From: Dulcicalothrix desertica PCC 7102
GTDB taxonomy: Bacteria; Cyanobacteriota; Cyanobacteriia; Cyanobacteriales; Nostocaceae
Reading direction: 5' to 3'
Length of the DNA: 64,000 nt
Assembly: GCF_003991905.1 (NCBI RefSeq)
Contig: NZ_RSCL01000009.1
Location: 243,894-307,893 of the forward strand
A program made the position numbers and the translations under genes. The stretch's first letter is position 1; the number at the start of each line of letters is the position of its first letter. Under the pieces are notes generated by a model. It made no database searches. It had not been told where the DNA came from and saw nothing but the letters and a program-made list of their open reading frames with translations. Shown one piece after another: positions 1 to 64,000 of the stretch.

Positions 1-1024
1 CTTGACGGTCAAAGCGTCCAGGACGACGTAGCGCAGCGTCTAAAACTTCGGGACGGTTGGTTGCGGCAATAATAATTACACCTGTATTAGCGTCAAACCC
101 ATCCATTTCTGTGAGTAACTGGTTGAGGGTTTGTTCGCGTTCGTCGTTTCCACCATAGAAACCACCGCTTCCTGCCCGTGATTTTCCTAAAGCGTCTAAC
201 TCGTCTATAAATACAATACAGGGAGATTGTTGTTTAGCTTGCTCGAATAAATCACGTACACGTGCGGCGCCAACACCTACAAATAATTCGATAAACTCAG
301 AACCGGAGATACTAAAGAAAGGTACACCAGCTTCACCAGCAATTGCTTTTGCTAAGAGAGTTTTACCTGTTCCTGGAGGTCCAACAAGTAAGGCGCCTTT
401 AGGAATTTTCGCACCCAAACGAGTATATTTATCAGCGTTTTTGAGGAAGTCTACAACTTCTTCTAATTCAGCTTTGGCTTCTTCGATACCCGCAACATCG
501 CTAAATTTGACTCCAGTACTACCTTCAGAGTAAATACGCGCTTTGCTTTTACCAACAGTTAAAGCAGCAGGCCCACCACCTTGACGGTTAAGGAAGAAAC
601 CCCAAATACCGACAAATATTAACGGAGGTAAAACCCAACTTAATAAAGTGCCTATCCAACCATTTTGGTCTGGAGGAGGCGCCGCAAATTCGACTTTGTT
701 ATCGCGTAAAATTCTAGGTAAGTCAAGGTCTATTGCAACAGGTGTTGTTTGGTAAACCTGTTCGACCTCTTTACCTTCAGGAGTTTGAGTTTTAATGGAA
801 TATTGAATTCGGTCTTGACCTACAATTGCCTTATTTACCTTACCTGCTTGCACTTGCACAATAAAGTCACTGTAAGCAATTCGAGGTAACTTAGGACCAG
901 AGAAGCTAGGAACGACTAAATTTAGCACCAACAGCAACGTTAACAGAACTAATAAACTACCACCAAACTGCCTAACACGGGGTGGCTTCATCTTATTTTT
1001 GTTATTATTAGTCTCTACCGGCAT
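1..1024 (-). CDS. ftsH: FtsH-family ATP-dependent zinc metalloprotease (C-terminus off window)
   Basis: Membrane-anchored AAA protease that degrades damaged membrane proteins (in cyanobacteria including photosystem II D1) and some soluble regulators. Only the first 341 codons are inside the window. Visible in order: a positively charged N-terminus, a first membrane segment at about residues 22-42, a periplasmic/lumenal domain, a second segment at about 125-147, then the AAA module with Walker A GPPGTGKT at about 215, Walker [11 protein letters not shown] at about 267, and the second region of homology with the arginine fingers ([10 protein letters not shown]) at the window edge. The HExxH protease motif would lie beyond position 1. 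The start is the ATG at 1024, the first in a long open frame. The family assignment is firm; which of the several cyanobacterial FtsH paralogues it is cannot be told from this part. Confidence 0.95.
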
Positions 1025-1225
1025 TAATATATTCCTCCAGCATGTAACGTTTATTTATATTTAAGGGTTTATCCTCAAAATCCCTGATAACCTTGCAAGT
1101 TAATTATGAGAAACATTGTAAAGGATTATGAATAGTTCTATTGTAGAGAGAGTTTAGCTTTATAGACGTTCGCGTCAACCGTCCCAGAAGATTCGTATAG
1201 CCGTACTTTTAATAGAATAGATTTT

Positions 1226-1417
1226 ATGGAAAATCAGATTGGATTAATTATTAAAGTCATGTTGCTCTCAGGGGTATTGTCATTTTTGATAAAATATGCT
1301 GAACCAGATATCTTAGTTCCTGCAACAGATATAAATGCCCTAATTCTCGTATTATCCCCCAGTATAATAATGGCAGTTTTGCTGGGCGCCCGTTTGATTA
1401 AAGCGAAAAATGGTTGA
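1226..1417 (+). CDS. small membrane protein of unknown function, 63 aa
   Basis: Not recognised. The 63-residue product has two hydrophobic stretches, about residues 6-23 and 37-56, separated by a short acidic loop (YAEPD) and ending in a basic tail (RLIKAKNG), so a two-pass membrane peptide is likely. It lies divergently from the ftsH-type gene with a gap of about 200 bases, and no strong Shine-Dalgarno sequence is visible before the ATG. Small membrane hypotheticals of this form are common in cyanobacteria, but I infer no function. Confidence 0.5.
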   Translation: MENQIGLIIKVMLLSGVLSFLIKYAEPDILVPATDINALILVLSPSIIMAVLLGARLIKAKNG

Positions 1418-1729
1418 AAATTCTTGAGTCTGTATTATAAAACAAATTTACTAATTAATTTGTGCGCCATTGGCGCACATTTAAAACTACGCCTGCGCGC
1501 GTTTTTGAATTTTTTCGTAAAGTTAAATTACAATTAACGTATATGTATTAAAGTGAATAGAATGCCTCCCCAACTAGAAAATGGTCAATTTAAATAATCG
1601 CATTATCAGTTATCGTACCAGGCGCCTCTTTAACTAACGAACCATTACAATTACTGGGCGAAAGGGATAAAATCGGCTAATCTAGCTACATCGTTAGTAA
1701 AATAGTTCGCTAAAAGTTGGGAGTTGGGT
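1418..1729. other. 312-base intergenic stretch with a short perfect palindrome
   Basis: No gene seen. Holds a 19-base hairpin at 1461-1479, arms TGTGCGCCA and TGGCGCACA around a single T, which may end the transcript of the small upstream gene although no T-run follows it, and one GGCGCC site at 1621. The end of the region carries the GGGAG ribosome binding site of the next gene. Confidence 0.5.
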
Positions 1730-61552: not shown

Positions 61553-61730
61553 TAGTAGAAAGTGCTGAGTGCTGAGTGCTTAGTAAAAGAGTGCTTAGTA
61601 AAAGAGTTTTGCTGTATAAGTAGTAGCACATTATCTTCAAATATTTCATCACTTATCTTTTACTCTTTACTCTCCACTCTTCTCCCCATACTCAGCACGA
61701 GCGCACTTTCTACTCAGCACTCTTTACTAC
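61553..61730. repeat. GTGCTGAGT-type repeats between ecfT-like and der genes
   Basis: AGTGCTGAGTGCTGAGTGCT and GTAAAAGAGTGCTTAGTAAA near the left; CTCAGCACGAGCGCACTTTC and ACTCAGCACTCTTTACTAC at the right. The der stop codon (TAG at 61727) touches the last unit. Confidence 0.8.
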
Positions 61731-63094
61731 ACTCGCGTTGCACGGTTTGTGGTAATAACGCTGCCTTCTGCGTCGCGAACTTTCTTACTGCGCCATAGTA
61801 TTCTTATAGGTGTACCTTTGAAACCTAGTTGTTGACGGAATTGACGCTCGATGTAGCGACGATAGTTATCGTTGAAACGCTTGGACTCGTTGACGAATAA
61901 GGCAATTGTTGGCGGCGCCGTTGTTACTTGGGTGCCATAATAGATTTTACCTTGCCTACCACCGCGACTAACTGGGGGTGAATGCCAGTGTACTGCGTCT
62001 TCGAGAACTTCGTTGATAACAGATGTACTAACACGGCGCCGATGTGACTCAACGCTGCTGGTGACTAGTTCTAAGATTTTTTCAACACGCTGTCCGGTTT
62101 GAGCGCTGACAAAGATTGTGTCTGCCCACTCGGTAAAATGTAATCGTTCTTCAAGCGCTTTCTGATAGTCGTAAATTGTATGGGAGTCTTTTTCAATTGC
62201 GTCCCATTTATTTACAACAATAATACACGCGCGTCCTTCGTCAACGATTCGTCCCGCTAGTTTTTGGTCTTGGTCGGTGACTCCATCCAGTGCGTCTATT
62301 ACTAATAACACTACATCCGAACGTCGAATAGCTTTGAATGCACGGTTAATACTAAAGAATTCTGTACCATATTCGATACTTTTCTTTCTGCGAATTCCTG
62401 CGGTATCGATAAGACGATATTTGTGCCCGTCACGTTCAATGAATGTATCAATTGCATCGCGGGTTGTACCGGAAATGGGACTAACGATGGCGCGTTCTTC
62501 ACCAACGAATGCGTTTAATAGACTTGATTTACCGACATTTGGGCGCCCGACAATCGCAATTTTGATTTCTTCGTTTTCTGGTATATCTTGTACCATCGGT
62601 AAATGGTTGATTAACTCGTCGAGTAAATCACCTGTACCACTACCGTGAATAGCAGAAATAGGATATGGTTCACCGAGTCCCAATGACCAAAACTCAGCAG
62701 CTTGCATTAAACCTTGTTCGGGAGATTCGCATTTATTGACTGCAAGCAAGACGGGAACTTTTTGAACTCGCAACCAAGAGGCAATTTCTTCATCAGAAGA
62801 ATTTGGCCCTGTTTGTCCATCGACTAAAAGAATAGCAGCACTTGCTTCAGAGAGTGCCGTCATCGCTTGCTGGCGAATAAACGGTAAAAATTCGGTATCA
62901 TCGTTGAATATCAAACCACCTGTATCAACGACTGTAAACTCTCTATCACGCCAAAACGCTTTTAAGTAGGTTCTGTCACGTGTCACACCTGGTTCATCGT
63001 GAACTATAGCAGTTTGTTCACCAGCGAGACGATTTACAAAAGTTGACTTGCCCACATTGGGGCGCCCGATAATAGCAACAACAGGTAAACTCAT
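61727..63094 (-). CDS. der: ribosome-associated GTPase Der (EngA)
   Basis: 455 residues with two adjacent GTPase domains and a C-terminal KH-like domain: first [17 protein letters not shown] (10-26), [14 protein letters not shown]; second [17 protein letters not shown] (about 183), [29 protein letters not shown]; the end [15 protein letters not shown]. Der is needed for maturation of the 50S ribosomal subunit. All G1-G5 motifs are intact and the length is normal. A metallophosphoesterase gene starts divergently about 110 bases upstream. Confidence 0.97.
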
Positions 63095-63205
63095 AATAGT
63101 TTAGTTAGCTCCATCTAAAATATTTATATTTGACAGTTAAACGAATTCAAACTTAAAACAGTACAGGGTATATAAAAATAAGTCTAAAAGACTGGAGATT
63201 GAACC

Positions 63206-64000
63206 TTGATATACTATAAGCAACGCCGTTATACACGCCGAAGGGTATTTAGATTTATCAAGTCAGGCTTATTTATACTCGGAATATGTACCTTACTATA
63301 CGCTTACTTCATAGAACCAAACTGGATTGAGATTAAATCGCTACAATTAAGTCTTCCACACCTTCCACAAGAATTTAACGAATATAGAATTGTACAAATT
63401 AGTGATATCCATGTCAATCGATGGATGACTTCAGCACGTTTAAAGCGTATTTTTCGATTAGTCAATCAGCAAAACCCTGATTCAATAGTAATTACAGGTG
63501 ACTTGGTAACACATGAGCAACAACGCTTTATTCCTAAATTACAACAGACACTGGGTCTACTTACCGCAAAAGAGGGTAAATTTGGAGTGTTAGGGAATCA
63601 TGACTATGGCGCCAATCCCGAAGCGATTGCAAAAACAATGGCAGAAACTGGTGTCATCAATCTCAATAATACCTATTATATATTACAACGTGGAACAGCA
63701 AAATTGTATATAGCTGGAGTAGATGATGTTTGGGCAGGAAAAGCTAGGTTAGACTTAGTGCTACAAAACTTACCATTAAATGGCGCCGCAATATTACTAG
63801 CACACGAACCAGACTTTGGCGACACCAGCGCCGCAACCAACAGGTTTGATTTACAATTATCAGGACATTCCCACGCTGGACAAATACGCTTACCCTTTTT
63901 AAAACCACCTGTATTACCTGACTTAGGTAAAAAATATTACGCAGGACTCTATCAAATTGGTGGAATGAAATTATACACAAACCGAGGTGTAGGTATGACA
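63206..64000 (+). CDS. metallophosphoesterase (YkuE-like), truncated by the window edge
   Basis: 265 codons visible. N-terminal membrane anchor (SGLFILGICTLLYAYF at about 15-33), then the calcineurin-like phosphoesterase: VQISDIHVNRWMT (Asp-x-His), SIVITGDLVTHE, GVLGNHDYGA (Gly-Asn-His-Asp), LLAHEPDF and LSGHSHAGQIRLPFL. Together these make the two-metal site of the YkuE/YaeI branch, known to act on lipid head groups or teichoic-acid related substrates. The start is TTG at 63206, with stop TGA in frame just before and GGAG nine bases upstream. No in-frame ATG replaces it. Confidence 0.92.
   Translation, partial: MIYYKQRRYTRRRVFRFIKSGLFILGICTLLYAYFIEPNWIEIKSLQLSLPHLPQEFNEYRIVQISDIHVNRWMTSARLKRIFRLVNQQNPDSIVITGDLVTHEQQRFIPKLQQTLGLLTAKEGKFGVLGNHDYGANPEAIAKTMAETGVINLNNTYYILQRGTAKLYIAGVDDVWAGKARLDLVLQNLPLNGAAILLAHEPDFGDTSAATNRFDLQLSGHSHAGQIRLPFLKPPVLPDLGKKYYAGLYQIGGMKLYTNRGVGMT

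What the first reader, a model, noticed from the sequence alone, without database searches (positions are those of the whole stretch)
1..64000. GGCGCC takes the place of HIP1 as the highly iterated palindrome
Reading the window I counted about 134 copies of GGCGCC, roughly one per 480 bases, in genes and between them, whereas base composition predicts about four. I noticed no copy of GCGATCGC, the HIP1 palindrome that dominates most cyanobacterial genomes. Flanking bases vary, so the core is the hexamer and not a longer word. In genes it is read in all three frames (Gly-Ala, Ala-Pro, Arg). It is absent from the rnpB and tRNA genes and thin at 5.9-9.0 and 54.6-56.2 kb. This suggests a strain in which the HIP role, perhaps tied to a different methyltransferase, moved to another sequence.
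Basis: partly seen in the sequence, partly recalled or inferred. Interest (0 to 1): 0.85.

Follow-up and report, generated by a model that had tools for sequence, protein, structure and literature searches.

The report
GGCGCC replaces HIP1 throughout a genus
In one genus of filamentous cyanobacteria the short mirror-symmetric DNA word that normally peppers cyanobacterial genomes has been swapped for another, GGCGCC, apparently after a DNA-cutting enzyme was lost and its DNA-marking partner stayed; the swap was already known from one strain, but here it is shared by all seven species examined and its sites are wearing away at the marked letter.

Summary
The window has 134 GGCGCC (composition predicts 3.7) and no HIP1. 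The 11.4-Mb genome has 19,393 GGCGCC and only background HIP1 (58; reversed-word control 62). The phenomenon is in print: Elhai 2015 (PMC4390886) described GGCGCC as an alternate HIP in Calothrix PCC 7103, a congener here. What I add: (1) it is genus-wide: 7 of 7 congeners have 7,475-20,380 copies, the other 83 family genomes searched at most 603. (2) All seven carry an m5C methyltransferase of the GRCGYC (BsaHI/HindV) kind; the endonuclease RE_HindVP is in 27 of 150 relatives, always beside that methyltransferase, and in 0 of 7 congeners. (3) Most sites are shared by descent, their spacing tends to be even, the outer four bases are constrained, and they erode by C>T at the inner cytosine, the base M.BsaHI methylates; losses outnumber gains 37 to 2-9. 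Best reading: endonuclease loss freed a methyltransferase whose GGCGCC sites built up before the genus radiated and are now maintained but decaying. The cellular role (mismatch-repair strand mark or other) is inferred, not shown.

The parts
1..64000 (.). 134 copies of the palindrome GGCGCC, in genes and between them; mean gap 478 bp; no GCGATCGC
   Evidence: whole genome 19,393
7161..9005 (.). longest gap between neighbouring GGCGCC copies in the window (1,839 bp start to start)
   Evidence: not unusual
14463..14906 (+). RNase P RNA gene (rnpB), no GGCGCC inside
   Evidence: Rfam RF00010; site check
52318..52390 (-). tRNA-Val(tac), no GGCGCC inside
   Evidence: site check

Best explanation
GGCGCC is the alternate highly iterated palindrome of this genus (the genus, as the tools group genomes, that holds Calothrix PCC 7103, PCC 7716, NIES-4105 and HK-06). 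Proposed history: the ancestor carried a type II GRCGYC restriction-modification system of the BsaHI/HindVP kind, as many relatives still do. The endonuclease was lost and the m5C methyltransferase stayed at a fixed chromosomal place (absence of the one and place of the other are shown for the living species; the loss itself is inferred). With cutting gone but methylation kept, the fully palindromic member GG(m5C)GCC rose to about one copy per 0.6-0.9 kb, the other three GRCGYC words stayed rare, and HIP1 and GATC fell to background or below (counts shown, order of events inferred). Most sites predate the split of the species compared. Today they are maintained at the outer four bases and lost mainly by C>T at the inner, presumably methylated cytosine, faster than new ones arise (shown on the sampled alignments). 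The most likely use of the sites, inferred only, is as methyl marks read in hemimethylated form after replication, for instance by strand-directed mismatch repair as Elhai proposed.
For: Genus-wide: 7 of 7 congeners have 1.15-1.71 GGCGCC per kb and 3.6-22.6 HIP1 per Mb; the 83 other family genomes searched have at most 603 GGCGCC, with median HIP1 710 per Mb. Words: GGCGCC 24-42x expectation in all seven samples; GGCGTC, GACGCC, GACGTC 0-0.45x; GATC 0.04-0.19x. Methyltransferase: 81-99% identical to the own copy in five congeners, and in the sixth (HK-06) split over contig ends; same place and no endonuclease beside it in six genomes. Partner: in relatives the same methyltransferase adjoins RE_HindVP, 27 of 150 genomes, 0 of 7 congeners. 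Recognition core of the target domain conserved with the paired enzymes. M.BsaHI methylates the central C of GRCGYC (PMC2413257); H. influenzae Rd shows GRCGYC m5C (PMC8565308). Family genomes outside the genus with the methyltransferase have fewer GGCGCC (median 5 of 21 genomes vs 34 of 62, P 0.0014), as a GRCGYC-directed system predicts. Of 116 sites in the five-species in-group, 83 are also in at least one of the two outgroup congeners. Substitutions matched for codon position and trinucleotide: outer bases 4 changes vs 21.2 expected, middle 4 vs 11.1, inner transitions 26 vs 16.0. 37 losses vs 2 gains (exact word) or 9 (presence); same sign under five anchors and two outgroups.
Against: No methylation data for any of these strains. 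Other m5C methyltransferases are in the genomes (13 PF00145 matches in the own genome), among them one more shared by 7 of 7, though that one is widespread in HIP1-rich relatives. The excess of inner C>T is modest (1.63x, P 0.013) and at fourfold sites alone not significant against other C|G sites (13/116 vs 35/452, P 0.26). Endonuclease loss alone is not enough: outside the genus six family genomes have the methyltransferase (two of them only fragments) without RE_HindVP and none is GGCGCC-rich (3-277 copies). One three-genome comparison gave nearly balanced turnover (6 losses, 4 gains, own genome and PCC 7103 with the MAG as outgroup). Net loss is not what a repair ratchet at a steady set point predicts. 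No mismatch-repair link was tested.
Confidence: 0.6

Rival explanations
1. Elhai's G(m5C) mismatch-repair ratchet is still running: methylation of a new strand at sites that gain GG(m5C) makes repair keep the mutation, so GGCGCC is held at a set point of about one per kb by a balance of gain and loss.
For: A matching methyltransferase is present in all seven; spacing is more even than random in three of five stretches (0, 7 and 12 of 2000 simulations as even); one-off precursors other than the T-form are rarer than in sister genera (ratio 0.48-0.83), but so are unrelated GC-rich words such as GCCGGC and GGGCCC, so this is not specific.
Against: Gains are rare: 37 losses vs 2-9 gains. The local deficit of neighbours reaches only about 100-150 bp (pair ratio 0.45 and 0.54 below 100 bp, mild dips to 0.79 at 300-500 bp), not about 1 kb. 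As I read it, the model gives no reason why the outer bases of the site should be more constrained than other nearby bases.
Confidence: 0.2
2. GGCGCC is a selected binding site (chromosome organisation, segregation, replication or DNA uptake) that took over the job of HIP1; methylation is incidental.
For: Outer and middle bases change at 0.19x and 0.36x the matched expectation; 26 sites intact in 7 of 7 species in 39,349 aligned positions; even spacing in three of five stretches.
Against: No binding protein was sought here; net loss of sites; the match of the word to the resident methyltransferase's target would be a coincidence.
Confidence: 0.2
3. A Vsr-type very-short-patch repair turns GGTGCC/GGCACC into GGCGCC after m5C deamination, as Vsr enriches Dcm sites in E. 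coli (recalled).
For: Of one-base differences between congeners at GGCGCC, 239 of 376 (pairwise, not independent) are GGTGCC or GGCACC. Single-outgroup comparisons show a few T-form to GGCGCC gains (0-3 each in eight comparisons).
Against: Vsr (PF03852) in 0 of 90 relatives including 7 congeners. The T-forms are enriched, not depleted (1.96 vs 0.34 in sisters), and polarised changes run mainly from C to T: 25 of 37 losses, no exact gains from the T-forms.
Confidence: 0.04
4. Base composition, codon usage (Gly-Ala) or an artefact.
For: Frame 0 (Gly-Ala) is the commonest frame (203 of 381 sites within ORFs).
Against: 34x over composition in 1.13 Mb from seven genomes; reversed word CCGCGG once in the genome; present in all frames and outside ORFs; seven separate assemblies.
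Confidence: 0.01

Closest known systems
Alternate HIP GGCGCC of Calothrix PCC 7103 (Elhai 2015, PMC4390886)
   Same: Same word, same loss of HIP1, GATC and CGATCG, same depletion of the other GRCGYC words, GrCGyC methyltransferases present; PCC 7103 is a congener of this genome (G004).
   Different: Elhai saw one genome plus 19 kb of Calothrix D253 and argued that exceptional HIPs are sporadic and not in clades; here it is in 7 of 7 species. Cross-species turnover, matched per-base constraint, net loss and spacing were not in the sections I read. His Figure 5 (not held) has columns for the GrCGyC endonuclease and for deviations by position, so part of the enzyme picture for PCC 7103 may be there.
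HIP1 (GCGATCGC) of most cyanobacteria
   Same: Short GC-rich palindrome at roughly one per kb, tied to solitary methyltransferases (Elhai 2015).
   Different: Different word and methyltransferase. In a small sister sample HIP1 spacing was not more even than random (150 gaps).
BsaHI / HgiDI / HindV GRCGYC restriction-modification systems
   Same: m5C methyltransferase family by its paired endonuclease; target base (central C in M.BsaHI) matches the inner C>T seen here.
   Different: No RE_HindVP in the genus; target word GGCGCC abundant instead of avoided.
Dcm/Vsr of E. coli (recalled)
   Same: m5C in a short palindrome with C>T decay.
   Different: No Vsr found here and T-forms accumulate.

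Membership tests
Highly iterated palindromes (HIP class of Elhai) | GC-rich palindrome at about 1-2 per kb genome-wide, far above expectation | tested here: met
   19,393 copies, 1.70 per kb; O/E about 37 in sampled own-genome DNA
Highly iterated palindromes (HIP class of Elhai) | occurs only where HIP1 is low | tested here: met
   HIP1 58 vs control 62; 31-163 in all seven
Highly iterated palindromes (HIP class of Elhai) | genome encodes a methyltransferase able to act on the word | tested here: met
   GRCGYC-type m5C methyltransferase in 7 of 7, specificity by homology only
Highly iterated palindromes (HIP class of Elhai) | word is methylated in the cell | not testable with these tools
   no methylation data held
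GRCGYC (BsaHI/HindV) methyltransferase | C5 cytosine methyltransferase domain with catalytic PCQ and ENV motifs | tested here: met
   PF00145 E 7.9e-66; motifs near residues 84 and 123
GRCGYC (BsaHI/HindV) methyltransferase | homologues paired with a HindVP/BsaHI-type endonuclease | tested here: met
   adjacent by coordinates in 27 of 27 genomes with RE_HindVP, remnants included
GRCGYC (BsaHI/HindV) methyltransferase | recognition core of target domain conserved with GRCGYC enzymes | tested here: inconclusive
   conserved with methyltransferases paired with RE_HindVP; not aligned with M.BsaHI itself, whose sequence was not held
GRCGYC restriction-modification system | endonuclease present | tested here: not met
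   RE_HindVP in 0 of 7 congeners; an unrelated endonuclease of this specificity was not sought
Vsr short-patch repair | Vsr endonuclease present | tested here: not met
   PF03852 in 0 of 90 relatives

The most novel reading that the evidence does not exclude
A heritable, genus-wide swap of the highly iterated palindrome: loss of a restriction endonuclease turned an avoided word into the most iterated one in an early burst, and the 7,000-20,000 sites per genome have since been kept as methyl marks under base-by-base constraint while m5C deamination slowly erases them. Some HIPs would then be inherited relics under maintenance rather than the output of a running mutational ratchet, and HIP1 itself would be dispensable over a whole genus.
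Probability: 0.35. Interest if true: 0.72.

Novelty: new member of a known kind. Interest (0 to 1): 0.5.

Why it matters
HIP sequences are a long-standing puzzle: what makes and keeps thousands of copies of one palindrome? A genus of sequenced species, several of them culture-collection strains, in which the word changed gives a natural experiment. It removes one published argument for a special need for HIP1 (that exceptional HIPs do not occur in clades), names one methyltransferase gene to delete, predicts the methylated base, and gives measured per-base rates that help separate a running ratchet from maintenance plus decay.

Tried and rejected
Vsr-type repair: rejected (0 of 90 genomes, T-forms enriched). 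GGCGCC- or GCGC-specific methyltransferase: no evidence; the shared enzyme is of the GRCGYC kind. The 370-aa methyltransferase shared by 7 of 7 was set aside because close homologues, many over 70% identical, are in HIP1-rich relatives (77 of 150 in all, the 7 congeners and some fragments included). Order outlier G146 (9,489 GGCGCC) looked like an independent case and carries a relative of the methyltransferase (54% identity) without RE_HindVP, but it is GC-rich (54.6% in 52 kb) and the enriched words are CGGCGC, AGCGCC and GGCGCT at least as much as GGCGCC (O/E 4.8-7.2): not the same thing. The unmatched inner C>T excess (23/630 vs 23/1581, P 0.0025) shrinks when matched for codon position (1.63x; not significant at fourfold sites), so I lean on the matched figures. 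NCBIfam and PADLOC scans gave only generic names. Methyltransferase carriers without RE_HindVP outside the genus do not differ significantly from those with it (median 38.5 of 6 vs 5 of 15, P 0.09). Sisters were sampled by about 20 kb each (10 genomes), a small baseline. G097 gave only masked letters. The Beggiatoa paper (PMC5920184, one passage) was looked at and not used. Clustering of methyltransferases used 60 fetched regions around the stronger matches; weak partial matches were not fetched. Rows dropped before counts: alignments under 300 bases or 74% identity (400 bases and 72%), positions with gaps, and positions without at least three of the five in-group species plus the outgroup (all seven). 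Two scripts used counts copied by hand.
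Full report
OBSERVATION. The window holds 134 GGCGCC against 3.66 expected from composition, and no GCGATCGC. It lies in an 11.42-Mb genome of 109 contigs, with 19,393 GGCGCC (the reversed control word occurs once) and 58 HIP1 (control 62).

WHOSE GENOME. The window's record is not named by the tools. I recall that Dulcicalothrix desertica PCC 7102 has a genome of this size; that name is a lead, not a result (the genus exists in the taxonomy).

ALREADY IN PRINT. Elhai 2015 (PMC4390886; abstract, passages, sections 9, 13, 19 and part 1 of 18 seen) reports GGCGCC as the alternate HIP of Calothrix PCC 7103 and of 19 kb of Calothrix D253, with low HIP1, GATC and CGATCG, two GrCGyC methyltransferases, and a G(m5C) mismatch-repair model. 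It states that exceptional HIPs occur sporadically and not in clades, and uses this to argue for selection on HIP1. Its figures, one of which tabulates endonucleases and deviations by position, are not held. Listings of later work (titles and abstract starts only) showed no other paper on GGCGCC in these cyanobacteria; the library lacks most subscription journals.

NEW 1: A GENUS-WIDE SWAP. Of 150 relatives, all 7 of the genus have 7,475-20,380 GGCGCC; the other 83 family genomes have 0-603. HIP1 is 31-163 per genome in the genus (reversed control 37-75) and has a median of 710 per Mb in the other 83. In shared 7-way alignments the congeners are 81-95% identical, so this is no recent strain event. 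Four of the 83 carry fewer than 1,200 HIP1 copies (G020, G028, G086, G087) without GGCGCC being high (25, 326, 15 and 3), so low HIP1 alone does not bring GGCGCC.

NEW 2: THE ENZYME. By clustering of fetched PF00145 matches the genus shares two m5C methyltransferase families in 7 of 7 genomes. One is widespread in HIP1-rich relatives (77 of 150). The other (own copy G000 C4:441,733-442,671; 313 aa) is 81-99% identical in five congeners and sits between an SLH/glycosyl-hydrolase gene and a RuBisCO-like gene in six of seven genomes with no endonuclease beside it. In HK-06 it is split over two contig ends, and a full-length homologue at 83% lies on another contig. Homologues occur in 42 of 150 relatives at E 1e-30, congeners, fragments and one distant match (36%) included. 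In three relatives examined the neighbour is RE_HindVP (E 1.9e-123 to 2e-154). RE_HindVP is found in 27 of 150 genomes, in every case next to the methyltransferase by coordinates (some are remnants), and in 0 of 7 congeners. The core of the target-recognition domain is shared with the paired enzymes. M.BsaHI, whose family includes HindVP, methylates the central C of GRCGYC (PMC2413257, passages and section 6); H. influenzae Rd shows m5C GRCGYC in RIMS-seq (PMC8565308, one table passage). Family genomes outside the genus that have the methyltransferase hold fewer GGCGCC than those without (median 5 of 21 vs 34 of 62, P 0.0014), as restriction avoidance predicts. The congeners invert this: GGCGCC 24-42x expectation while GGCGTC, GACGCC and GACGTC are at 0-0.45x.

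NEW 3: HOW THE SITES EVOLVE. I projected orthologous stretches of six congeners on the own genome (window, MTase regions, later also 100 kb upstream of the window). In 39,349 positions aligned in all seven, 26 sites are intact in 7 of 7; 83 of the 116 sites present in the five-species in-group are also in at least one outgroup congener. Private absences backed by an outgroup number 26 (15 more without that backing) and private presences 4, while three sets of control hexamers give the opposite (losses to gains 9:41, 11:48, 5:29). On the larger set there are 37 losses and 2 gains by exact word, 9 gains by presence, and 23 absences where the outgroup also lacks the site; the sign holds for five anchors and two outgroups. 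In an earlier, smaller set of eight three-genome comparisons losses also led in every one (15:2, 7:1, 13:2, 10:2, 11:0, 11:2, 4:2, 6:4), the last nearly balanced. Losses go mostly to GGTGCC or GGCACC (25 of 37). Against a background matched for codon position, fourfold status and trinucleotide, the outer bases changed 4 times (21.2 expected, P 6e-6), the middle bases 4 (11.1, P 0.015), and the inner bases had 26 transitions (16.0, P 0.013). At fourfold sites, inner C>T is 13 of 116 and outer C>T 1 of 121 (P 0.0006), but inner against other C|G fourfold sites is 13 of 116 vs 35 of 452 (P 0.26), and GCC codons elsewhere are low too (2 of 104). So constraint on the outer bases rests mainly on the matched test, and hypermutation of the inner C is supported but modest. 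P values treat lineage-sites as independent, and the GGCGCC set is conditioned on the whole word being shared by the other species, which the background is not; the inner base serves as internal control for that.

NEW 4: SPACING. Gaps are more even than random in the own genome (CV 0.83, 0 of 2000 simulations as low), PCC 7103 (7 of 2000) and HK-06 (12 of 2000), not significantly in NIES-4105 (172) or PCC 7716 (382); none of 87 control 5-mers in the own genome is as even; gaps under 100 bp are about half as common as expected in four of the five stretches and about two thirds in NIES-4105. The deficit of pairs is confined to about 100-150 bp, with mild dips at 300-500 (own genome). The five stretches are partly orthologous, so they are not five independent tests.

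MECHANISM. Shown: genus-wide presence, a shared methyltransferase, absence of RE_HindVP, word counts, direction and position of changes, spacing. Inferred: that the ancestor had the full restriction-modification system, that GGCGCC is methylated at the inner C in these cells, that accumulation happened before the species split, and that the sites serve as methyl marks. A running repair ratchet does not fit rare gains; Vsr repair does not fit (0 of 90, T-forms 1.96x vs 0.34x in sisters). Endonuclease loss alone is not sufficient: six family genomes with an unpaired methyltransferase, two of them fragments, are not GGCGCC-rich (3-277 copies).

VERDICT. A correct observation of something known in one strain, here extended to a genus with a concrete enzyme history and evolutionary rates. 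New member of a known kind; interest 0.5.

Noticed in passing
G000 contigs C7:24-36 kb, C25:97-102 kb, C19:20-36 kb, C12:140-142 kb, C13:285-288 kb: Many of the few HIP1 copies of the genome listed are clustered on short stretches, as if these islands came recently from HIP1-rich donors.
   Followed up: no
2.1 Mb sampled from the genus: Alternating CG words CGCGCG (O/E 8.7) and GCGCGC (5.6) are a second, weaker enrichment; GCGCGC is at 0.14 in sister samples.
   Followed up: no
2.1 Mb sampled from the genus: CCGCGG, GTCGAC and GTGCAC are absent from the sample and GATC is at about 0.1x, pointing to several strong past or present restriction specificities.
   Followed up: no
G146, sampled contigs (L161-L164): GC-rich relative with 9,489 GGCGCC, low HIP1 (74) and an unpaired distant homologue of the methyltransferase; the raised words centre on CGGCGC/GGCGCT. 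Possibly another HIP-like switch.
   Followed up: partly
G028, G086, G087 (same family): Family genomes with low HIP1 (535, 30 and 990 copies) and no GGCGCC rise; they may carry other alternate HIPs.
   Followed up: no
own genome against four close congeners: The window's species has lost far fewer GGCGCC sites (2 of 76) than the other four (35 of 276; P 0.01).
   Followed up: partly
L069, L082, L057; L073, L079; L093: Some congeners carry extra, about 60% identical members of the GRCGYC-type methyltransferase family, also with no RE_HindVP in the genome.
   Followed up: partly
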